From NCBI GenBank assembly GCA_012517285.1, contig JAAYVG010000024.1, positions 1 to 49,269 on the forward strand: DNA of 49,269 bases. The letters are read 5' to 3'. Below the pieces are notes generated by a model that was not told the DNA's origin, searched no databases, and worked only from the letters and a program-made list of their open reading frames with translations. Origin of the DNA: Elusimicrobiota bacterium. Its GTDB lineage: Bacteria > Elusimicrobiota > Elusimicrobia > Elusimicrobiales > UBA9959. Positions within the stretch are counted from its first letter, which is position 1, and every line of letters starts with the position of its first letter. The translations under genes were made by a program, and so were the position numbers. Of this stretch, positions 34,911 to 47,019 are shown in pieces.

Positions 34911-35546
34911 ATGAAGAAGATTACAGGAATAAAGATTATTGCTGGTTTCTTTTTGTTGCTTGCAGCAACTGTAATAATATTGATAACAACAGAGGAACCA
35001 AAAGAAGTTCTATATGATACAGAAAAAACACCATCATACAGACAGAAGGGAAATAGCGAAGCGAAAATTGTAATAATAGAATATACTGATTTCGCATGCC
35101 CGGCTTGTGCTGCTGCCAATACCTATGTCAGCAATCTTATAAAATACTTTGGTGATGATTTTAATGTGAATTTTAAGCATTATCCTCTGACATCAATTCA
35201 TCCCTATTCATTCAACGCTGCTGTCTGGAGTGAGTGTGTGGGTAAGGAGTATAATAAGTTTTGGGAATTTTCAGATATGCTTTTTAATAGAAGGCTTGAA
35301 TGGTGGGATAAAAAAGATTATTCAAAGCTTTTTAAAGCTTATGCCGCTGAACTCGGTATTGATGATAAGAGAATAGCAAAATGTCTCGGAAGTTCTGATG
35401 CAATAGATCTGGTAAAAAAGGATATGGAAAGTGGTGATAAATTCAAGGTGGATTCAACTCCAACATTTTTTGTAAATGGAAGGAAGGCAGTTGGTGTGAT
35501 GGAGTTGATAGAGGAGATCAAGAAGGAGAAACAAGGTGGACTTTAA
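34911..35546 (+). CDS. Membrane-anchored DsbA-like thiol oxidoreductase
   Basis: An N-terminal signal anchor (about 6-26) is followed by a DsbA-type thioredoxin domain. The active site is CPAC in DFACPACAAANTY (about 62-65). FKHYPLTSIHPYSFNAA and the cis-Pro segment VDSTPTFFVNG (about 180-190) are typical. It would catalyse disulfide formation or exchange in the periplasm. The next gene, starting inside its 3' end, encodes a MauE/DoxX-like membrane protein that could be its electron partner. Confidence 0.85.
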   Translation: MKKITGIKIIAGFFLLLAATVIILITTEEPKEVLYDTEKTPSYRQKGNSEAKIVIIEYTDFACPACAAANTYVSNLIKYFGDDFNVNFKHYPLTSIHPYSFNAAVWSECVGKEYNKFWEFSDMLFNRRLEWWDKKDYSKLFKAYAAELGIDDKRIAKCLGSSDAIDLVKKDMESGDKFKVDSTPTFFVNGRKAVGVMELIEEIKKEKQGGL

Positions 35547-36000
35547 AAACAGAAGAGAATTAGTTTCGGCTATTATGAGAGTTGTGGTTGGTTGTATCCT
35601 AATATATTCTGGCTTTATTAAAATTTCAGAGCCTTTAGAAAATTTCTATAATGCCATACTCGGCTATAAGATTGTAAGTGGAGATCTTGCATTAATATCA
35701 GCACAAGTCGTTCCATGGATTGAGGTTTATCTTGGAGTTCTGCTTGTGTTTGGTCTGTTTAACAAGCTGGTATCAATTTTTTCAATTCTCCTTTTTTTAG
35801 GCTTTGAGCTGCTGCTCGCTCAGGCCATGATAAGAGGGCTTGAGGTGGAGAACTGTGGATGTTTTGGTGCAACACATTCCAATCCAATAGGGGTGGAGTT
35901 TACTTTAAACCTTGTATGGCTTTCATTCCTTTTCTTGGGCTATAAATTTTCATACAGATTTTCGCTTGATAGATTGATAGAAAGCAAATTTTCAAAATGA
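35536..36000 (+). CDS. MauE/DoxX-like membrane protein
   Basis: The GTG start at 35536 has AAGGAG upstream and overlaps the DsbA-like gene. The 154-aa protein has four predicted helices (about 10-28, 45-75, 75-97 and 118-140). NCGCFG (about 113-118) lies after the third, a pattern typical of MauE-like proteins linked to disulfide chemistry. It may reoxidise or reduce the DsbA-like partner; that is inferred from the neighbour and the Cys pair. It overlaps the next gene by 4 nt. Confidence 0.75.
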   Translation: MDFKNRRELVSAIMRVVVGCILIYSGFIKISEPLENFYNAILGYKIVSGDLALISAQVVPWIEVYLGVLLVFGLFNKLVSIFSILLFLGFELLLAQAMIRGLEVENCGCFGATHSNPIGVEFTLNLVWLSFLFLGYKFSYRFSLDRLIESKFSK

Positions 36001-37004: not shown

Positions 37005-37580
37005 ATGGCGGGATTATTTAAAATTATTATGTGTTTAATGCTTTCTTATCTGTTTTGTAATGAGAACATCTCATATAATAATACCGAGCAGATAAAAAAA
37101 AAGACGCTTGATACCACAACTGATGCCTTTAAAAAACTTAATTCTGATACTCATATATTTTCAAAAGAATTTTTTAAGGATGATCCATTCAAAGAGATAG
37201 AGAATGCAGAGCTTGATATAACAAAATATCTTTATGATAAGACAAAATCTGTGAAAAAGAATGATGATGAGAGCAGTTATATCACAGAGGATTTAAAGAT
37301 AACAGAAAGTTACGATGATAGTAATATAATAAAAGAGGTAGAAATCCCCGGCATAAATAAAAAATCTTTATCCGTTGATATAAGGGATGGCAGCATAATT
37401 ATAAAGTATAATAAAAACAAAAACATATCTTTGAAGAATGATCTCAATGGTCCTGTAACAGAAAAAAAGTTTTTTAAAAAAATAAATCTTCCTTCCAATG
37501 CAAATACATCGGAATTTAGATACAGAGTAAATAATAACAAGGTAATAATTATGTTAAGAAAAAATAATAGTTTGAAGTAA
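37005..37580 (+). CDS. Exported small-heat-shock (alpha-crystallin-like) protein
   Basis: The 191-aa protein starts with a hydrophobic signal-like segment (AGLFKIIMCLMLSYLFC). A charged linker follows, then an alpha-crystallin-like domain (about 105-187): VEIPGINKKSLSVDIRDGSIIIKY and KKINLPSNANTSEFRYRVNNNKVIIMLRK. Cytosolic Hsp20 proteins lack signal peptides, so an envelope location is unusual. The Cys near residue 18 could be a lipid site, but the lipobox is poor. It stands alone, about 200 nt upstream of the five-gene array. Confidence 0.65.
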   Translation: MAGLFKIIMCLMLSYLFCNENISYNNTEQIKKKTLDTTTDAFKKLNSDTHIFSKEFFKDDPFKEIENAELDITKYLYDKTKSVKKNDDESSYITEDLKITESYDDSNIIKEVEIPGINKKSLSVDIRDGSIIIKYNKNKNISLKNDLNGPVTEKKFFKKINLPSNANTSEFRYRVNNNKVIIMLRKNNSLK

Positions 37581-37691: not shown

Positions 37692-37720
37692 TTGACAACC
37701 ACTCTATTTTCTGCTATAAC
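37692..37720 (+). promoter_or_regulatory. Strong sigma70 promoter of the four-gene array operon
   Basis: Perfect TTGACA (37692-37697), a 17-nt spacer and TATAAC (37715-37720). It is the closest to consensus in the window, suggesting high expression of the genes from 37785. Confidence 0.75.
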
Positions 37721-37784: not shown

Positions 37785-38771
37785 ATGAAGATTTTAAATG
37801 CTCATGATAAAAAGAAAAAGACTCAGTATATCATAGCTTCTATTATTGCCATATTGATTCTCTGCCTGTGGGTAACGCTTCCTGTGCTTGATTCAGGCAT
37901 GGGTAAGGGTGGGTCTTCATCGTATGGTATGCAAAAAAAATCTGCTGATCTTGCTCTTCTTGACTCAGCAGGTGTGGATGCTCCTGGACAACCATTGAAT
38001 GGTTCTATGATTGATAATCCTGCAACTTCGCTCGACCTCACGGCTTCCTCGTTGTTCAAGATGCCAGGTCAGGATGGAGAGGCTGCGAGTGATATCGCTT
38101 CTTCTGAAAGCTCATCTGTTGATTCGGATTCAGAAAAGATAGATTCAGACGTATCCGCACCAAACGTTCCTGTTCCATCAGCAGATAAGGGTTTTACCAA
38201 AGGAAAGCTTTCAAGACTACCTTCTTTAAGCTCAGGTGGTGGCAGCTCTCTTACTGTTGGAGGGAATCACAGCAAATTTTTTGGTCAGGAGAATGTTAAG
38301 GCGGATCTTGTTCCGCTGAATACTAACTCAAATGATATAAAATCAACAAAAAACAATGTGGCTTTATCAGCTTTAAAGCATGCTGAACAGGGAAGTTTTA
38401 TGGCAGCCAATGCTAAGAATGCTGATGCTGCTAAATCATCAGCTACAAGCGCTTTTGAGAAAACCAAAAAAACTGATGAGTCTTTTTTGAACTCAAAGGA
38501 AGAGAAGGAATATTCAAAGAGTGGAGTGGAGTTTTCTAATGCTGTCAGTGATCTTAAAAAAAGTGATCCGAGTCTGAGCAAAAAAAAGATAGCGCTTCCG
38601 CAACCAGTAAAGGATGAGGATGAGAGCAAACAGATGGAAGAGCAGATAAAACAAATGCTTTTACAGATGATTATACAAGCTACTGTTGGTCAGGTGTTTG
38701 GGGCTATAGGTCAGATGATGTCTATGCAGATGTGTCCTCAGTGTTATAAACCTCAAACCACCACTAAATAA
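37785..38771 (+). CDS. Array protein 1: membrane-anchored low-complexity protein
   Basis: I do not recognise this 328-aa protein. The ATG at 37785 with AGGTGG upstream is preferred over an in-frame GTG at 37776. It has a basic tail (NAHDKKKKTQ), one membrane helix (about 13-33) and a Ser/Asp-rich region with LSSGGGSSLTVGG. A helical Ala/Lys-rich part (QGSFMAANAKNADAAKSSATSAF) weakly resembles the module in its neighbours. The C-terminus is an amphipathic, Met/Gln-rich helix ending in CPQC (MQMCPQCYKP). The N-in, C-out topology is inferred. It is first in a four-gene operon. Confidence 0.75.
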   Translation: MKILNAHDKKKKTQYIIASIIAILILCLWVTLPVLDSGMGKGGSSSYGMQKKSADLALLDSAGVDAPGQPLNGSMIDNPATSLDLTASSLFKMPGQDGEAASDIASSESSSVDSDSEKIDSDVSAPNVPVPSADKGFTKGKLSRLPSLSSGGGSSLTVGGNHSKFFGQENVKADLVPLNTNSNDIKSTKNNVALSALKHAEQGSFMAANAKNADAAKSSATSAFEKTKKTDESFLNSKEEKEYSKSGVEFSNAVSDLKKSDPSLSKKKIALPQPVKDEDESKQMEEQIKQMLLQMIIQATVGQVFGAIGQMMSMQMCPQCYKPQTTTK

Positions 38772-38783
38772 AAGGGAGGGTTT

Positions 38784-40391
38784 ATGAACAGTTATGATCA
38801 GAATAAAAAAGATAAGAAGAAGGGCTTCCTGCCATTCTTTTCAAGGCTTTTTGATACCTCTTCTAAGGCCGCAACCGGTTTGGCCGGTGGGGCTGGAAGA
38901 GCGGCTCTTGGTGGTGCAGCAAAGGGTGGTTTTTTTGCATCACTTTTTGCTACAAAGGCAGGTGTTGTAGGGCTTGTTCTTGGAGCTGCTACAATTGCTG
39001 CTGGTATAGGGTTGGTATATAACTATATGGAGCCATCGTCATCAGGAAAGGTTTACACACCTAACCTTTTTTCAAATGCTTATTATGATGAAGCCCAGAG
39101 GCAGGCCAATGCTGAAAGAGCAAGATATTCGAGCGAAGTTCCTGCTCAATCCTCCCTTGATGTTTTTAAAAAGGTGGCCAAAGAAGAGTTGAAGAGTGAG
39201 GAACCTATTGATGAAAATGCAACTGATGAAGCATCAAATGGCAGCGAGGATATTAATGGAGCCAATGCCTCATCTGAAAATGCTGATGTAAATGCATCTG
39301 GCGGTGGTTACGGTCAGGTGAATCCGGGCATTGGTGGCGATAGAAAGCTGCAGTCAAATTTAGGTTTTGATGCAAAGGGAGCAGCCGGTGGTGGTTCATC
39401 GCAGAATAGGTTGCAGACATCAGGTGGTATGTGGGGTGGGATAGGAAAACAGTTTGCTCCTATAAGCAGAAATGCATCCACTGCAAATGCAGCAAAGGCT
39501 TCACAGATGAACAAGGCTCTCGCATCAAGGGTTGTGGCTTCTCCAAAATATGCGGTTCCTAATGTTAATAAAAAGGGTGCGTTCGGTCAGGCAAAGTTTG
39601 CAGCCAAGACTGGGAAAAGTGCTGCTTATGATGCATCCGATGCTGGTGCAAGAACGACTGCTGAACAGGCATTCTCTGGGGAGACTGCAGGTTCTGGTGA
39701 TGTAGCCACCCCTATAGGTGGAACCGGATTGGGTGGAAGTGGGTTATCTCAGGGTGATAAGCTTAAAGCAAATGATCCAACACTTAATACTGATGAATAC
39801 ACACCTCCAACTCCTGAAAAAACTGATGATTCTCCATGGAAAAAATTAACTGATTATGCTTTATATGCAATGCTTGCTGCTGCAGGTTTTATTGCAATAT
39901 CATCGTTGCTTGCTAACAAAGCTAAGGCATTGCTTGCAAATCCAATAACAGCAGCAGGGGCAGTAGGGCTTTTTAATGCTGCCAAGGTTTTTGCTTATTT
40001 GGCTATGGCAGCAGCGGCTGCTGTGATAGGGATAGCTGTTATGTTAGCTTCTAAGTATGGCCAGAAAATGATGGGTATTATGTATGGTATGGTTGGTGCT
40101 GCCCTTATATATCAAGCTTATAAAGCACTTTCAGGTATAAATGAAGGGCTTGATAAGGCTCAATCAGCTGCTAACTTTCAGCAAAATGCTTTGCAGGGTA
40201 TGAGTGAAGGTCAGCAGGCTCAGTTTAAGAGTCTGACACCTGAACAGCAGTGGGGTGAGGTAACTAAATATACCAATGCTCCTGATGCCTATACATTTAA
40301 CCCACCTACTGCTGAAGTTCCCGCTGCTCAAGTCCCTGCTGCAGAAATTCCTGTTCCAGAGGATTTGCCACCTGGTACGATGTTCACCTAA
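38784..40391 (+). CDS. Array protein 2: anchored Ala/Gly-rich multispan protein
   Basis: I do not recognise this 535-aa protein. It has the order KKDKKKGFLPFF basic tail (9-19), a Gly/Ala-rich stretch, a membrane helix (about 59-81), SSLDVFKKVAKEEL (123-136) and a long Gly/Ser/Asn region with KLQSN and RLQTS. The shared module follows (264-320: KKGAFGQAKFAAK, AGARTTAEQAF, PIGGTGLGGSG). Three to four C-terminal membrane helices come next (about 357-448), then a soluble tail with repeated VPAA/EIP units. It starts 12 nt after protein 1 with GGAGGG upstream and is paralogous to protein 3. Confidence 0.78.
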   Translation: MNSYDQNKKDKKKGFLPFFSRLFDTSSKAATGLAGGAGRAALGGAAKGGFFASLFATKAGVVGLVLGAATIAAGIGLVYNYMEPSSSGKVYTPNLFSNAYYDEAQRQANAERARYSSEVPAQSSLDVFKKVAKEELKSEEPIDENATDEASNGSEDINGANASSENADVNASGGGYGQVNPGIGGDRKLQSNLGFDAKGAAGGGSSQNRLQTSGGMWGGIGKQFAPISRNASTANAAKASQMNKALASRVVASPKYAVPNVNKKGAFGQAKFAAKTGKSAAYDASDAGARTTAEQAFSGETAGSGDVATPIGGTGLGGSGLSQGDKLKANDPTLNTDEYTPPTPEKTDDSPWKKLTDYALYAMLAAAGFIAISSLLANKAKALLANPITAAGAVGLFNAAKVFAYLAMAAAAAVIGIAVMLASKYGQKMMGIMYGMVGAALIYQAYKALSGINEGLDKAQSAANFQQNALQGMSEGQQAQFKSLTPEQQWGEVTKYTNAPDAYTFNPPTAEVPAAQVPAAEIPVPEDLPPGTMFT

Positions 40392-40435
40392 TTTGCATTG
40401 TGGAAGATGTTTTTGTTGTGTGATATGGAGGGTTT

Positions 40436-42022
40436 ATGAACGAATTTGAAGACCTTAAGAGAAAGAAGGAAAAAAAGGATAAAAAGAAGGGTTTTATAAC
40501 TTGGTTTAAGGAAAAACTAGGATTCAGCCCTCGTGGAATGGGAAATGTTTCCGAGGGTGCAAGAGGAATTAATCTTGCTGGATTGAAGGGTTCGGCTGCA
40601 AATATCGGTGCAGGAAGGTTTGGCAGTGCTGGAATTTTTTCAAAGCTGTTTGGAGCCGGCGGAATATTCTCATTCATTGGTGGAAAGGCTGGCCTTATTA
40701 CACTTGGTCTTATTGCCCTTGCGGTTGGAACCACCCTCTATATGAGAAACTCTGGCAGCATGGGTGATGCAAATATAGATGGCAGCATGGGTTCAAACTC
40801 AAACATTGCTTCATATGTGCCAAAGATAATGAGAGAGCGTCAGAGTGCTTCTTCCCTTGATCTCTTTAAAGCAGCGGTGAATGAAGGTGGGCTTAAGGAT
40901 GAGGATTCAGTTTCAAGCGATGAGGAGATTGGTGAGGGTGCTGACGATAAAAGCTCGAAGGATGTAAATAGTGGCAATGATACGAGCAATGCTTTAAAGG
41001 GTGCTCTCGGGTTTGAGAATAAGTCAAGGTTGCAGACCAATATGAATTTTGGCCTTACAAGCGAGATAGCTGGTGGTGATAACAAGTTCAGTGCTCTCGG
41101 TGGTTTTGGTAATCAGATGGGCAAGTTTGGTACCCCTGCAAAGGCTAATTTTTCTAATGGAGATTTGCTTAAATCAGCTAATAGTAAAGGTGCAAATGCT
41201 GGAAAGCTTAGCTCTATGAAAGCTCAGAAGAGGCCTGTTATTTCCCAGGGGCCTAAGTTTAACTCTACCGCTGGTGGCAAAAGGGCATTCTCTCAGGCGA
41301 AGGCTGTTAAAAGTGGTTTGACCCAACCTAATTATGGCTCGGCTGACTCTGCAAGATCAAATATGGATAAGGCATGGGAAGGAACTACATCAGGTGGCGG
41401 AGATATTGGATTGCCTCAAGGAGGCACTGGTATATCATCAGGTGGCGGCAATGGAATAGTTCAGACACCTTCAACCCTTGATAACATAGGCGATGTAACA
41501 CCGGCAACGCTTACTGATGAAAACATTCCTACCAATATAAGCTCCTCATTCAATACACCATGGGCAGGAATGCTTCAACAGGCGATGATGTTCCTTATGA
41601 TATCAGCCCTTCTTGCCGGAATAGCATCGATGGTTTCTAAGATTCCTGTAGTAGGTAAGATACTTGCTACCATACTTGCTGTTGTGGCTATAGGGCTTGC
41701 CGTTATGGCTATAATGATTGGTATGAAGATTATGAACCAGTTTGGTCAGAATAAATTGGGAATGATCTATGTCATAGGTGGTGGCCTTGCAATAGCTGGA
41801 GCAATTGCGGCTATAGGTGGGGTATGGTTTGGCTGGAGTATGCTTTTTTCACAGATACTTGCAGGTGCGGCTGGAATTATGGCATTGTTTGCCTCTATGG
41901 CTGCAGGCCCTGCTGCAACAGATTATGCAAAAAAACAGATGGAACAGCAAACTCAGCAGACAGAGAGTTCTAACTCCTCCTCAGATAAAACGGCCACAGT
42001 AGCTGATACTGTGACGAATTAG
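40436..42022 (+). CDS. Array protein 3: paralogue of array protein 2
   Basis: I do not recognise this 528-aa protein, but it follows protein 2 step by step: KKDKKKGFITWF (13-24), a membrane helix (about 82-103), SSLDLFKAAVNE (139-150), SRLQTNMNF (197-205) and the module at 281-337 (GKRAFSQAKAVKSG, DSARSNMDKAWEG, PQGGTGISSGG). Four or five C-terminal membrane helices follow (about 378-490). The tail is Gln/Ser/Thr-rich instead of Pro-rich. GGAGGG precedes the ATG. The pair looks like an old tandem duplication. Confidence 0.78.
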   Translation: MNEFEDLKRKKEKKDKKKGFITWFKEKLGFSPRGMGNVSEGARGINLAGLKGSAANIGAGRFGSAGIFSKLFGAGGIFSFIGGKAGLITLGLIALAVGTTLYMRNSGSMGDANIDGSMGSNSNIASYVPKIMRERQSASSLDLFKAAVNEGGLKDEDSVSSDEEIGEGADDKSSKDVNSGNDTSNALKGALGFENKSRLQTNMNFGLTSEIAGGDNKFSALGGFGNQMGKFGTPAKANFSNGDLLKSANSKGANAGKLSSMKAQKRPVISQGPKFNSTAGGKRAFSQAKAVKSGLTQPNYGSADSARSNMDKAWEGTTSGGGDIGLPQGGTGISSGGGNGIVQTPSTLDNIGDVTPATLTDENIPTNISSSFNTPWAGMLQQAMMFLMISALLAGIASMVSKIPVVGKILATILAVVAIGLAVMAIMIGMKIMNQFGQNKLGMIYVIGGGLAIAGAIAAIGGVWFGWSMLFSQILAGAAGIMALFASMAAGPAATDYAKKQMEQQTQQTESSNSSSDKTATVADTVTN

Positions 42023-42041
42023 GCTAAGGGAGGGAGGCTTT

Positions 42042-43691
42042 ATGGCTAATAAGTTTATAGAGAAGCATAAAAAGAAGTCATTATGGGCATTGTTGCTTCT
42101 TCTTTTTCGTGGAAGGAATAAGTATATTGCTCTGCTTGTGGTTGTTATGCTTTTATCCATACCTTTTGTAGCCACATCTGATATGATGGAGAGGTTTCTT
42201 AATCTTTCATCTGTGAGGTCAATGTTGAGCTCATTAGGGCTTGAAAGAGTAGTTGCATCACTAACGCATAATAATAAGTATTCGGGTGATTTTCTGAAAT
42301 CAACATTCTCTGATCTCAAAGCTGAGTATGAGGCAAACAATCTATGGAATAAGGTGACAGGTGGTATGGATTCTAGGGGTGGAGAGGATGGAACAATAGC
42401 GTTTGTTCGCTTTGGTGAAGATTTTCTTAACTACGGTAAGAATAAAAAATCAAAAAATGGGAAAAATAGTGAGATATCAGATTATATATCAAAGGATGAT
42501 AGTGAAAACGGTATGGGTGCTGATGGTGTGGACTTAAATAATCCGGGTCCAGATTCATATGGAAATGGTATGGGTGTGGATGGAATTGGTGGTATGGGCT
42601 CAGCCAATGGAAGATTGAAATCTTCATTGTTTGCTAATGGGATTGGTAGTGGGATGTTTGGAAGTAATATGATGAATGGGGGAAGTCATAATGCTGGTGG
42701 TTCTGGTGGCTATGGACCTTATATCAATAGAAAGGATTTCAATGGTAAGGGAGGCAGTGGATATGGTGGGAAGAGTATTGCATCATCAGCTCTTGACGAT
42801 ATAAAAAAGACCGTTCCTGATGCTAAGGATCCGAAGGGAGGCAGCAAGGTTAAGAAGATGGGCAAGCTTACTGCGTTTGGATGGAAGAATGTTGGTTATA
42901 CAAAAAAGGGTGCAAACATTGATGTTAGTGTAACAGGTAACAGAAGAGCACTCTTTCAGATGGGGGAGACTTTAGCAACTACTTCTATGGCCTACAAGCA
43001 GAATCCAGCATATGAGTATCAGGCTGCATATACCGGTGCAACATATGATGGCAATACAATGAATGGAGATATCGTTGTAACTGATCCTGAAATCAACACC
43101 ACTGTTCCTGATACTGCTTATGTATCAGATGTCGTTGATTCTGCTCAGCACTGGGAGGAGATAGCAAAAGAATGTAGCGATGCTCAGGCTACAAATGGAA
43201 CAAGGATATCAGAGTTACAGAAGGAGATGGATGATATATCCAAAACTATGGGAAAACCTCCAAAGTGCTGTAAGAATGTTGGACCTTGGAACTCAAAGGT
43301 AAGTCGGTTAGTGAGTTTATGTAATGAGTTGAACAGTAATTCAGTAGCATTATCTCAGAAGTGTGGTGGAAGCACTCCTCAAACCATAAACTGTCAGCAG
43401 AGCTATGGGAAACTTCATATAAAGCCATGCAGTAAATGGAAGTGTTGGCTTGGCATAATACTTGCTATTGTTGGCTTGCTTGTTGGTTTCCTTATGGGTG
43501 GTTTCTTGGGTGCCATAATCGGGGCCGTGGTTGGCTTTGCTGTTGGTAGTATCGGTTCCATGTATCTACAGATGATGGCTATGGCCTCTGCATTTGCTGG
43601 TGCTGGAGCTTACTTTGCTGATAAAGGATCAGAAAAGGCTATAAATGTTACTGAAGAAGTTAATAAAGATGTGGCGGATGAGAATAAGTAA
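42042..43691 (+). CDS. Array protein 4: Cys-rich anchored protein with C-terminal helices
   Basis: I do not recognise this 549-aa protein. A basic tail (EKHKKKS) and a membrane helix (about 27-44) lead to a Gly/Met/Asn-rich region. GRLKSSLFANG (189-199) recalls the RLQT motif of proteins 2 and 3. A loose version of the shared module lies at 299-342 (NRRALFQMGE, MNGDIV). Next is a cluster of eight Cys (377, 408, 409, 426, 440, 450, 462, 467), then Gly-rich membrane helices (about 468-525). It is last in the operon, with a terminator 23 nt after the stop. Confidence 0.75.
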   Translation: MANKFIEKHKKKSLWALLLLLFRGRNKYIALLVVVMLLSIPFVATSDMMERFLNLSSVRSMLSSLGLERVVASLTHNNKYSGDFLKSTFSDLKAEYEANNLWNKVTGGMDSRGGEDGTIAFVRFGEDFLNYGKNKKSKNGKNSEISDYISKDDSENGMGADGVDLNNPGPDSYGNGMGVDGIGGMGSANGRLKSSLFANGIGSGMFGSNMMNGGSHNAGGSGGYGPYINRKDFNGKGGSGYGGKSIASSALDDIKKTVPDAKDPKGGSKVKKMGKLTAFGWKNVGYTKKGANIDVSVTGNRRALFQMGETLATTSMAYKQNPAYEYQAAYTGATYDGNTMNGDIVVTDPEINTTVPDTAYVSDVVDSAQHWEEIAKECSDAQATNGTRISELQKEMDDISKTMGKPPKCCKNVGPWNSKVSRLVSLCNELNSNSVALSQKCGGSTPQTINCQQSYGKLHIKPCSKWKCWLGIILAIVGLLVGFLMGGFLGAIIGAVVGFAVGSIGSMYLQMMAMASAFAGAGAYFADKGSEKAINVTEEVNKDVADENK

Positions 43692-43713
43692 TAGTGTATA
43701 GTTAAAGTTTAAT

Positions 43714-43760
43714 AAAAGCCCAGGTATTATAAAGCGTCTATCGTTTGTACCTGGGCTTTT
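43714..43760 (+). terminator. Rho-independent terminator of the array operon
   Basis: AAAAGCCCAGGTA (43714-43726) pairs perfectly with TACCTGGGCTTTT (43748-43760), giving a 13-bp stem ending in the T-run. The loop is about 21 nt. Confidence 0.9.
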
Positions 43761-43763
43761 ATA

Positions 43764-43987
43764 ATGTTCTCTTAAAAAAAGTTATTTAGTTATCTCGTTG
43801 TCTGTTATTTGGGAAGAAGGGGCAGGCACTGACCACTGGTCACTGTTTTGATGAGGATTTGTCGTTTTCTTCTTATCCTCAATCTTAATCTTAGCCTTAA
43901 CCTGTAGTTACAATATGAGCTTTAAGTGTCTTAAAGAACAATTTTCATTGTTCTAAACTTCAACGGTTAGAGTTTTTCAGTGCCACC
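43764..43987. mobile_element. MITE-like element between terminator and array gene 5
   Basis: The left end ATGTTCTCTTAAAAAAAGTTAT is a degraded copy of GGGTTCACTGAAAAAAAGTTAT. The right end TTTTTCAGTGCCACC is better kept. TA flanks both sides (43762-43763 and 43988-43989). The interior segment 43841-43898 repeats 26080-26137. The rest of the gap to 44143 is AT-rich and may hold the gene 5 promoter, but I see no clear pair of boxes. Confidence 0.62.
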
Positions 43988-44143
43988 TATATAGGTCTAA
44001 TAGTCCCATAGATTAAAGGGAATAAAGACTCTTTTAAGTTTTTAAAATTTATGCTAAATTATAGAAGGAAATAATTATTGATTTTAAGTTTTTATTGTTA
44101 ATGTTTATGTATAAATTAGCTGTTTAAGAAGAATGGAGGATGT

Positions 44144-46960
44144 ATGAGCTTTAGAATAAATCATAAGAAGGATCAGAATGATAATAAATCTAATATGGAT
44201 TTAAATATTCCTTCTTCTAAGGAAGAAAAGAAAACGAAGAAGGGATTTGGTATTACAAAAATAAATGGTTCTACTTCTTTTATTAACAGACTCAGAACAA
44301 TATCAAAAAGGGATTTATCTTTTTTGATAGTTGGTATTGCTGTACTCGTTTGTGCTCCTATGGCTGAGTATTTTTTTTCAAAGCCTGATACATCAACAGC
44401 TTTGACACCAGGCTTTGGTGAAAGAAGAGATTCTGATAGCAACTTTTCTTATGATCCCGGTATAAACGGTATGAGTGCTGGCTCTCCTGATGGTATGGAA
44501 GAGGTTATAGCTCCTCTTACAGCGAGGGATCCTGCCTCCCTTATACTTAGTGGTCAAAAACAGGAGCCTGTTTTATCGGCACCCCCTCCACCATCTGATA
44601 CAAAGAGAGATTCTATAGGTGATATAGCGAAAAAATCATATGTTCAGGCTGTCAAATCATCTCCTGCACCCTTCATCCCACCAAAGATGAGTGCAGCATT
44701 GAGAGGGCTATCATCGGTGGGTGATAGTGGTTCAAGGATAGTTGCTGATGCAAATGGTAATAAGATAATGGCTGAGGCAAAGAGTGCTCCTAATAAGGCT
44801 CAGAAAAAGTCAATGTTAGGGCCTCAGGCAATACCGGGTTATGGTGGAGTTGCGACTCAGAGTGATTCTGTCAATAAAGGTGCCTTTGAAAAATTGAGAA
44901 CTCAGGCTGATGCTGCTGCGGGATACTTTTCTGGAGCCAATGCAAGGGAATCGCTTGAGGATGCTGCGGCTGCTATCAATGCTAAGGGCTCAGCTGATGG
45001 CGGGTTCGGTGCTTTAAACGATGGTGATAAAAACACAAATCCATCAAATTCAAGCTTGCAAGGCACATTCTCGTTCAGCGTTGGAGACCCTTGTAGCGGT
45101 TCAGTTGAAAATCAGATAGCCTGTGAAAATGCTAAAAAAGCGAATGAGTTTAAGAATTTTTTGAAGTATGATCTTCCGAAAAGCATATTGCAGTCTGCTG
45201 TCGATAATATACTTGTGAATGGAGTTCTTAAGCCTGTTGGTGATAAGGTTGCAAAGGCGACCAAGAGTATGGTTGATCCATCAGGGCCTCCGCCTCCAAC
45301 AAGGTATTGCTGGAAGAATAAGTCTAAAAAGGTTGCAGTTGAGACAGCTGAGGATAAGGATGGTCATATTCAGCTAATTCCTCCTGTTTCTTTATCAGAT
45401 TGTCCATGTGGGTTTTTAACCACTGAGCCTGATCCTGATTGCAGTGGTCCAACAACATCTACCGCAACTCCTAATGGGACAGATCCTGTTGTCGAACCGA
45501 GCACAGGACCAACTGGTGGTAATGGTGGCGGAGCCGGTGGCAATGGTGGAGGTAGTGGTGGTGGAACTGCTGGTGGTGATTCTGGTGGCGTAAATCCCGC
45601 AAAGAGTGATATTGAAAGTTATGATACATACTTAAAAGAAGCTATAGCTGCTGCAAAAACAGGTGAGCTTGCTACTGATGTCCCTACACTTAAACAGCAG
45701 TCAGATAAGGCCTCTAAAAATATTGAGTCTGCTTTGGGTGTTGCTCAGAACATTACAAAGGCCAATGTATCAAAGGTTGATGCAAATGGTTTCAAAAAAG
45801 CTATGGATTATAAAATGGCAATATCTGAGGTGAATTCTAAGGTAAAGACATTGAAGGATGACTATAATAGCTTTAACCAAGAGCTGAACAAGTTTGACGA
45901 GACACTCACAAAGGCTATAAATGACTATAAATCTGGAAAGATAAAACCAAAGCTTCAAAAGGGTGTTAGTGCAGAGACTCTTGGAGGTCAGGATATAATT
46001 TCAAAGCTTCAGGAAGCCAAGACTAAGCTATCAAAGATAAAGCAGGATGCTGCTGGTGTTAAGGATGAGTATCTGACAAAGTTTGAAAAGAGGCTTAATT
46101 CTCATGCTATGGCATCAAACTGGTACATCGCTCAGATTCAGAATATAAAAAAGATGAACAATGAGATATATTCTTTCACTGTGCCTGAGGCAAATGAAGT
46201 TCAGAGTATATCCTCTCAGCTTGCATCCATACCTCCGACAACTGCTGATCCAAATGATATAAATGGTTTAAAACAGTTGTTCTCAAGTCTTACAGGATTG
46301 ACTCCTAAAAATATTAGCAACAATACAACACCGGCTTCTCCCTTGCCTGCTGCTTCTGATGTTCAGTTTGCTAATGCAAAAAAGGCTTCTGTCTTCAGGA
46401 TGGCTCCTCAGGGGTCAGGTGGTAAGATTACAAAATTGATAAGTTGGAGAGGTGCTGATGAAAAGGCTGCTTGGGGTGGTGAGATAACAGACAAGTCAAA
46501 GCTTGAAGAGGATAAAAAGAACTTTGATTCTGTAAAGCCTTCGCTTACATTAACAAAGGGAGAGTATTCATCGTCATTTGCTGAACTTGCTGTAAAGGAG
46601 AGTTTTGTTGTAAGCATGTCAAGGCTTGATCTGGTAAACAAGGATATTGAAGCGTCAAAAAAACTTGTTTCCAATATACTTGAGGGAGTTGATGGCTTTA
46701 ACCTCCTTTTAGGTCGTGACAAAACTGATCTCGCAAAGTTACAGGAAGAGTTAAAGCCATTGCTTGATCAATTGAAACCTACTCCAAAGCCTACTCCTGC
46801 TCCGAAACCTACTACTCCAAAGCCTACTAAACCGACTAACAATCAGACAACGACGGTGATAATAAATAATATAATAAGCAATACCAATAACAACAATAAC
46901 AGCAACACGAATAATAATACAAACAACAGCAATTCCGGTATCCAAATAAAAAAGAAATGA
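44144..46960 (+). CDS. Array protein 5: long anchored protein with coiled coil and Asn-rich tail
   Basis: I do not recognise this 938-aa protein. The order is a charged cytoplasmic tail with KKTKKGFG (29-36), a membrane helix (about 58-78), and a Pro/Ser/Gly region. The shared module follows (245-288: NKGAFEKLRTQADAAAG, GANARESLEDAA). Then come a Cys-containing segment (DPCSGSVENQIACEN and later RYCW, DCPCG), a pure Gly-rich linker (about 462-488) and a long helical, probably coiled-coil region (about 495-690). The end has PKPTPAPKP repeats and a poly-Asn/Thr tail ending KKK. GGAGG precedes the ATG. It has its own terminator. Confidence 0.78.
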   Translation: MSFRINHKKDQNDNKSNMDLNIPSSKEEKKTKKGFGITKINGSTSFINRLRTISKRDLSFLIVGIAVLVCAPMAEYFFSKPDTSTALTPGFGERRDSDSNFSYDPGINGMSAGSPDGMEEVIAPLTARDPASLILSGQKQEPVLSAPPPPSDTKRDSIGDIAKKSYVQAVKSSPAPFIPPKMSAALRGLSSVGDSGSRIVADANGNKIMAEAKSAPNKAQKKSMLGPQAIPGYGGVATQSDSVNKGAFEKLRTQADAAAGYFSGANARESLEDAAAAINAKGSADGGFGALNDGDKNTNPSNSSLQGTFSFSVGDPCSGSVENQIACENAKKANEFKNFLKYDLPKSILQSAVDNILVNGVLKPVGDKVAKATKSMVDPSGPPPPTRYCWKNKSKKVAVETAEDKDGHIQLIPPVSLSDCPCGFLTTEPDPDCSGPTTSTATPNGTDPVVEPSTGPTGGNGGGAGGNGGGSGGGTAGGDSGGVNPAKSDIESYDTYLKEAIAAAKTGELATDVPTLKQQSDKASKNIESALGVAQNITKANVSKVDANGFKKAMDYKMAISEVNSKVKTLKDDYNSFNQELNKFDETLTKAINDYKSGKIKPKLQKGVSAETLGGQDIISKLQEAKTKLSKIKQDAAGVKDEYLTKFEKRLNSHAMASNWYIAQIQNIKKMNNEIYSFTVPEANEVQSISSQLASIPPTTADPNDINGLKQLFSSLTGLTPKNISNNTTPASPLPAASDVQFANAKKASVFRMAPQGSGGKITKLISWRGADEKAAWGGEITDKSKLEEDKKNFDSVKPSLTLTKGEYSSSFAELAVKESFVVSMSRLDLVNKDIEASKKLVSNILEGVDGFNLLLGRDKTDLAKLQEELKPLLDQLKPTPKPTPAPKPTTPKPTKPTNNQTTTVIINNIISNTNNNNNSNTNNNTNNSNSGIQIKKK

Positions 46961-46986: not shown

Positions 46987-47019
46987 AAAATGCCCCGATT
47001 CTTAATCGGGGCATTTTTT
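46987..47019. terminator. Rho-independent terminator after array gene 5
   Basis: TGCCCCGATT and AATCGGGGCA form a 10-bp GC-rich stem with a short loop, flanked by AAAA on the left and TTTTTT on the right. It could serve genes from both directions, including the minus-strand ORF that ends at 47018. Confidence 0.92.

What the first reader, a model, noticed from the sequence alone, without database searches (positions are those of the whole stretch)
37785..46960. Five-gene array of unrecognised, membrane-anchored low-complexity proteins
Five consecutive plus-strand genes encode proteins of 328-938 aa with the same plan: a short Lys-rich cytoplasmic tail, one N-terminal membrane helix, then a long Gly/Ser/Ala/Asn-rich region that should be periplasmic. 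Proteins 2, 3 and 4 add C-terminal membrane helices. I recognise no known secretion, pilus or S-layer component. The best-matching promoter in the window drives the first four. The set may form an envelope-spanning or surface structure of a new type.
Basis: partly seen in the sequence, partly recalled or inferred. Interest (0 to 1): 0.85.

Follow-up and report, generated by a model that had tools for sequence, protein, structure and literature searches.

The report
Pilus-linked membrane protein array
Five neighbouring genes in an uncultured Elusimicrobiota bacterium encode unrecognised, membrane-anchored, largely unstructured proteins that, in related lineages, sit at the end of the gene cluster for a Tad-type pilus, so they are most likely an undescribed add-on of that surface fibre machine rather than a free-standing new structure.

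Summary
In detail: five plus-strand genes (37785-46960; 328, 535, 528, 549, 938 aa) encode N-terminally anchored proteins with long Gly/Ser/Ala/Asn-rich regions; P2, P3 and P4 have extra C-terminal membrane helices. None has a convincing match in Pfam, NCBIfam, PHROGs or the PDB, and P2 and P4 match no solved fold. The genome is Elusimicrobiota. The array is conserved in strict order across the window's family, usually with a sixth member (P0); P5 occurs in 187 of 341 genomes of the phylum.

The context changes the interpretation. In the sister family P5 lies downstream of TadG/TadE-like minor-pilin genes, at the end of a full Tad (type IVc, Flp) pilus locus, in 39 of 41 same-contig genomes, same strand, usually 8-9 kb. 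Two further families agree (10 of 10 same-contig cases). In the window's family the array has moved away (0 of 48 linked), but the genome keeps a Tad core. P5 is rarely found without TadG, while TadG without P5 exists: an accessory module. The proteins look like distant paralogues.

Best reading: a lineage-specific, inner-membrane-anchored periplasmic accessory complex of the Tad machine, working with its minor pilins. Membership is well supported by gene order; the biochemical role is inferred. New variant of a known kind.

The parts
37692..37720 (+). Promoter-like site TTGACA-N17-TATAAC (11 of 12, TGn before the -10)
   Evidence: pattern search, one of five one-mismatch sites of this spacing in the window; suggestive only
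37785..38771 (+). P1, 328 aa, one N-terminal TM, Gly/Ser-rich periplasmic part; alternative start GTG 37776
   Evidence: same order in family f1
38784..40391 (+). P2, 535 aa, N-terminal TM, disordered middle, confident C-terminal helical bundle (residues 351-496)
   Evidence: paralogue of P3
40436..42022 (+). P3, 528 aa, N-terminal TM plus several C-terminal TMs; paralogue of P2
   Evidence: hhalign 100% with P2
42042..43691 (+). P4, 549 aa, N-terminal TM, disordered middle, conserved Cys-rich helical hairpin (about 358-460), C-terminal TMs
   Evidence: invariant cysteines; found in 53 of 101 relatives
44144..46960 (+). P5, 938 aa, one TM at residues 53-71, conserved N-terminal 290 residues with invariant RDPxSLI, long variable C-terminal arm
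   Evidence: profile found in 187 of 341 genomes of the phylum
46987..47017 (+). Terminator-like hairpin (14 pairs) followed by a short T-run, after P5
   Evidence: consensus match only

Best explanation
The array is an accessory module of the Elusimicrobia Tad (type IVc/Flp) pilus machine. SHOWN: in the sister family and in two other families of the class it follows the genes of TadG/TadE-like minor pilins at the end of the Tad locus, on the same strand; the window's own genome carries a Tad core; the array proteins are predicted N-in, membrane-anchored and not pilin-like, and are probably distant paralogues. INFERRED: they assemble into one heteromeric inner-membrane complex. P2-P4 would supply multi-pass membrane anchors, and the flexible periplasmic arms, above all the ~870-residue arm of P5, would reach across the periplasm and act on the pilus as it is assembled, most likely holding, loading or guiding the TadG/TadE tip pilins. 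It is not needed for the basic Tad machine, because some relatives have TadG without a detectable P5. In the window's family the block moved to another chromosomal place but stayed together as a unit.
For: Conserved order P1-P2-P3-P4-P5 in the family, with P0 in front in most. Linkage: P5 lies 8.1-15.3 kb downstream of TadG on the same strand in 39 of 41 same-contig genomes of family f2, and 11-26 kb downstream on the same strand in 10 of 10 same-contig cases of f14/f15 (G184, G186, G189, G190, G192, G195, G218, G219, G230, G233). Full Tad locus in f2: Flp pilin, TadE, RcpC, secretin, TadZ-TadA, TadB, TadC, TPR, regulators, TadG, TadE2, array. Window genome: TadE, RcpC, secretin, TadA, TadB, TadC and a TPR protein on contig 6, TadG/TadE2 on contig 35. 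Distribution: of 341 genomes 177 have both P5 and TadG, 10 P5 only, 24 TadG only, 130 neither (counted; Fisher). A P0-like paralogue lies next to TadE2 in one f1 genome (G036, HMM E=1e-11). Paralogy: P2-P3 100%, P1-P2 96%, P3-P4 90%, P0-P5 86%, P0-P1 80%, against at most 18.5% with reversed sequences.
Against: In the window's own family linkage to Tad is lost (0 of 48). No array protein resembles a known Tad component by sequence, and P2 and P4 match no solved fold. Co-occurrence partly reflects shared ancestry, since both sets mark the same clades. An E. minutum-like genome keeps Tad but has only a lone, divergent P5. Nothing here tests assembly into a complex or contact with pilins.
Confidence: 0.58

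Rival explanations
1. Stand-alone envelope structure: the array works on its own (or in this family became independent of Tad) as an envelope-spanning or surface complex, and the old linkage reflects shared regulation of surface genes only.
For: The array is moved away from Tad in all 48 f1 genomes that could be compared, yet stays together as a unit. A few genomes have P5 without a detected TadG (10 of 187).
Against: Linkage to TadG in three families; P5 without TadG is seen mostly in incomplete genomes; the f1 genomes with the array keep TadG.
Confidence: 0.2
2. Cargo or tip material: the proteins are themselves carried or displayed by the pilus (adhesive or tip-associated low-complexity proteins) rather than being fixed machine parts.
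For: They are encoded behind the minor-pilin (tip) genes; low-complexity, disordered middle parts; the P5 C-terminal arm varies strongly between relatives; array-like genes are multiplied in f14.
Against: P2, P3 and P4 are multi-pass membrane proteins; there is no class III (prepilin) signal match; the most conserved part of P5 is next to its membrane anchor.
Confidence: 0.12
3. Periplasmic bridge that replaces the missing N-domains of the unusually short (244 aa) Tad secretin, linking the inner-membrane platform to the outer-membrane pore.
For: The secretin of this genome aligns only with residues 207-369 of RcpA; in Pseudomonas the RcpA N-domain contacts RcpC (PMC12307814).
Against: The short secretin is equally present in genomes without a detected P5 (G173, G174, G175, G172, G092, G061) and in the E. 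minutum-like genome without detected P2/P3.
Confidence: 0.06

Closest known systems
Tad / Flp (type IVc) pilus machine with TadE/TadF/TadG minor pilins (Caulobacter Cpa, Pseudomonas Rcp-Tad, Myxococcus Kil)
   Same: Gene neighbourhood: full Tad core plus TadG/TadE-like minor pilins upstream of the array in f2, linked also in f14/f15; the window's genome has the same core. Denise et al. 2019 (PMC6668835) already report Tad systems in Elusimicrobia.
   Different: No array protein is detectably homologous to a known Tad component; five or six extra membrane-anchored proteins are not in the Tad descriptions read here; the array has moved away in the window's family.
RcpC/CpaB periplasmic alignment complex of Tad pili
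   Same: Works-like comparison only (hypothesis): N-terminal inner-membrane anchor plus a periplasmic part that accompanies the pilus across the periplasm (PMC12307814).
   Different: RcpC is a folded, conserved protein and is present separately in this genome; the array proteins are largely disordered in the models and have no sequence match to it.
Myxococcus Kil 'Tip' gene clusters (KilL/M/N, TadE/F/G-like; PMC12075869)
   Same: Accessory genes associated with Tad minor pilins; multiplied in some genomes (11 P2/P3-like matches in G189).
   Different: Kil tip proteins have pilin folds; array proteins show no pilin signal match and have multi-pass C-termini in three of five cases.

Membership tests
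Tad (type IVc) pilus system, as accessory member | encoded in or next to a Tad locus | tested here: inconclusive
   Met in f2 (39 of 41 same-contig genomes) and f14/f15 (10 of 10); not met in the window's own family (0 of 48), where the array has moved
Tad (type IVc) pilus system, as accessory member | genome encodes a Tad core (TadE, RcpC, secretin, TadA, TadB, TadC) | tested here: met
   Own genome contig 6: PF07811, PF16976, PF00263, PF00437 and two PF00482 proteins
Tad (type IVc) pilus system, as accessory member | sequence or fold homology to a known Tad component | tested here: not met
   No Pfam, NCBIfam or PDB sequence match to one; no Foldseek match at E<=0.001 for P2 and P4. So it is not filed as a known Tad component, only as a linked accessory
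Tad (type IVc) pilus system, as accessory member | needed for pilus assembly or function | not testable with these tools
   needs genetics or biochemistry
Type IVc pilin / minor pilin | class III signal or TadE-type N-terminal helix | tested here: not met
   No PF04021 or PF07811 match in P1-P5 at E<=1, while a Flp pilin and TadE of the system match
One paralogous family (P0-P5) | significant profile-profile similarity between members | tested here: inconclusive
   Chain P5-P0-P1-P2-P3-P4 at 80-100% against reversed controls at most 18.5%; P2-P3 beyond doubt; local-motif HMM test negative for the other pairs
Substitute for secretin N-domains | array presence tracks the truncated secretin | tested here: not met
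   short secretin also in genomes without a detected P5

The most novel reading that the evidence does not exclude
A previously undescribed multi-protein envelope complex of the class Elusimicrobia, made of diverged paralogues, that plugs into the Tad pilus, spans the periplasm with disordered Gly/Ser-rich arms and decides what the pilus tip carries or does; in one family its genes have become physically independent of the Tad locus.
Probability: 0.3. Interest if true: 0.7.

Novelty: new variant of a known kind. Interest (0 to 1): 0.52.

Why it matters
Tad pili are widespread surface fibres used for attachment and, in predatory Myxococcus, for contact killing, and structural work on them treats the parts list as nearly complete. 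A conserved block of five to six unrecognised membrane proteins behind the minor-pilin genes in several families of one class would add a missing layer to the machine, and it gives a testable function to genes that library searches cannot name in about 190 of 341 Elusimicrobiota genomes.

Tried and rejected
1) A shared ~40-residue module read by eye in all proteins: HMMs of each module found only P2/P3 in each other, the others not reliably above window-shuffled decoys; only the full-profile paralogy chain is kept. 2) Array as substitute for missing secretin N-domains: the short secretin also occurs in genomes without a detected P5. 3) DsbA/MauE-like genes upstream (34911-36000) as conserved partners: guessed from gene sizes in the same-genus locus and disproved by blastp. 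4) Sixth member P0 in this genome: no match to the same-genus P0; lost, diverged or in an assembly gap. 5) Fold searches with P2 and P4: only unspecific helical bundles. 6) The consensus promoter scan missed the site at 37692 because it demands T at the last -10 position; found by reading and pattern search. 8) Literature on Elusimicrobia Tad or pili: only a mention that Tad systems exist there. 10) PHROG 'attachment protein' hit of P5 (E=0.0044, residues 440-538, a Gly-rich stretch): treated as chance. 11) G022 gene after TadE2 looked P0-like by eye but did not score against the P0 profile; the G036 one did.

Full report
WHAT IS THERE. Five consecutive plus-strand genes at 37785-46960 encode proteins of 328, 535, 528, 549 and 938 aa, called P1-P5 here. 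All have a Lys/Arg-rich N-terminal tail, one N-terminal membrane helix and a long region of 36-46% Gly+Ser+Ala+Asn; P2, P3 and P4 have further membrane helices near the C-terminus, P1 and P5 do not. Codon-position mismatches against the same-genus relative (about 0.29/0.20/0.60) show real, constrained genes. P1-P4 are packed with gaps of 12-44 bp; P5 follows after 452 bp, and a 14-pair terminator-like hairpin comes after it. A TTGACA-N17-TATAAC site lies at 37692-37720; it is one of five one-mismatch sites of that spacing in the window, so 'best promoter' is a tie.

NO KNOWN FAMILY. Pfam and NCBIfam give nothing above curated cut-offs; PHROGs gives one marginal hit in a Gly-rich stretch of P5; PDB sequence searches with profiles of P2, P4 and the P5 N-terminus give nothing convincing. 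AlphaFold2 models of P2 and P4 are mostly low-confidence, with a confident C-terminal helical bundle in P2 (351-496) and a Cys-rich helical region followed by a membrane helix in P4 (from about 358); neither matches a solved fold.

WHO HAS IT. The genome belongs to Elusimicrobiota: forty relatives were found in public records, nearly all labelled Elusimicrobia/Elusimicrobiota, and the contig length of the closest (DYIF01000016.1, a MAG labelled Elusimicrobium minutum, 50208 bp) is that of genome G001, the same-genus relative. One sister-family genome, G067, has 1,643,562 bp, which from memory is the size of E. minutum Pei191; I call it E. minutum-like. P4 and P5 are found in 53 and 59 of 101 relatives, almost all in the window's own family f1. 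In that family the order P1-P2-P3-P4-P5 is kept; most genomes have a sixth gene, P0 (~400 aa), in front, and the block lies between murC-like/flavodiiron genes on the left and a 285-aa gene, dnaX, recR and comEC on the right. The window's genome lacks this setting, and P0 was not found in it. A P5 profile finds 187 of 341 genomes of the phylum, in both families of the order and several others of the class.

THE LINK TO THE TAD PILUS. In genome G068 of the sister family f2 the array directly follows TadG- and TadE-like genes. Extending the locus showed a complete Tad system upstream: Flp pilin with a class III signal, TadE, RcpC/CpaB, secretin, a TadZ-TadA fusion, TadB, TadC, a TPR protein, regulators, TadG, TadE2 and then the array. 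A TadG profile across the same 341 genomes finds 201. Both P5 and TadG occur in 177 genomes, P5 alone in 10 (mostly incomplete), TadG alone in 24, neither in 130 (Fisher P about 1e-55; inflated by shared ancestry). Where coordinates of both were listed on one contig, P5 is 8.1-15.3 kb downstream of TadG on the same strand in 39 of 41 f2 genomes and 11-26 kb downstream in 10 of 10 f14/f15 genomes. In f1 it is 0 of 48. The simplest reading is that Tad linkage is ancestral in this part of the class and that the array was relocated as a block in f1. The window's genome keeps its Tad core on contig 6 and TadG/TadE2 on contig 35, and in one f1 genome (G036) a P0-like gene lies near TadE2. A paper reports Tad systems in Elusimicrobia (PMC6668835); I found no description of this array.

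PARALOGY. P2 and P3 are clear paralogues. Profile-profile comparison links the rest in a chain (P1-P2 96%, P3-P4 90%, P0-P5 86%, P0-P1 80%), with reversed-sequence controls at most 18.5%. A local-motif test did not support a shared small module beyond P2/P3, so common descent of all six is likely but not proven.

HOW IT MOST LIKELY WORKS. The proteins show no pilin signal, have predicted N-in topology and, in three of five, multi-pass C-termini; this fits a fixed inner-membrane complex with long flexible periplasmic arms. Three things point to an accessory that serves the pilus tip or its passage across the periplasm: position behind the minor-pilin genes, P5 rarely occurring without TadG while TadG occurs without P5, and multiplication of array-like genes in f14 (11 P2/P3-like matches in G189). 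Work on other Tad machines shows that tip pilins decide function (PMC12075869) and that RcpC and the secretin N-domain form the conduit (PMC12307814); in Caulobacter further envelope parts were recently placed around the secretin (PMC13170226). The Tad secretins here are only about 245 aa and match just residues 207-369 of RcpA, but so short are also those of class members without a detected P5, so the array is not simply a replacement for secretin N-domains. The exact role (holding, loading or guiding the tip) is inference.

VERDICT. Observation confirmed; interpretation partly supported. On present evidence not a free-standing structure of a new type, but an undescribed, conserved protein module tied to a known machine.

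Noticed in passing
L101:9278-10009 (own genome, contig 6) and the places listed: The Tad secretin in this class is only about 245 aa: the secretin core without the N-domains that RcpA uses to bind RcpC, with or without the array. A puzzle of its own.
   Followed up: partly
L101:10333-12525: TadZ-like (ParA/MinD) and TadA (T2SSE) parts are fused in one 731-aa protein, here and in the E. minutum-like genome.
   Followed up: partly
L128:10294-14355 (genome G067, C1 about 646300): The E. minutum-like genome has a lone, divergent P5 (1353 aa) far from its Tad locus and no detectable P2/P3.
   Followed up: partly
genome G189 (family f14), places: Eleven P2/P3-like matches on six contigs, some in tandem: the array family is multiplied in this lineage.
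   Followed up: partly
L102:9841-11466 and G022 C35 about 219800: In family f1 an FtsH-like membrane AAA protease gene directly follows TadE2, where f2 genomes have the array.
   Followed up: no
window 37005-37580: Hsp20/alpha-crystallin-like protein (PF00011, E=7e-5) with a hydrophobic, signal-like N-terminus: possibly a periplasmic small heat-shock protein.
   Followed up: no
window 34911-36000: DsbA-like thioredoxin and MauE/DoxX-like genes side by side, possibly a disulfide-forming pair; not found beside the array in the same-genus relative.
   Followed up: partly
L060:13826-14875 and cluster 11 genes in other f1 loci: Deoxyhypusine synthase family gene (PF01916, E=7e-95), better known from archaea and eukaryotes, right downstream of the array in several relatives.
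   Followed up: no
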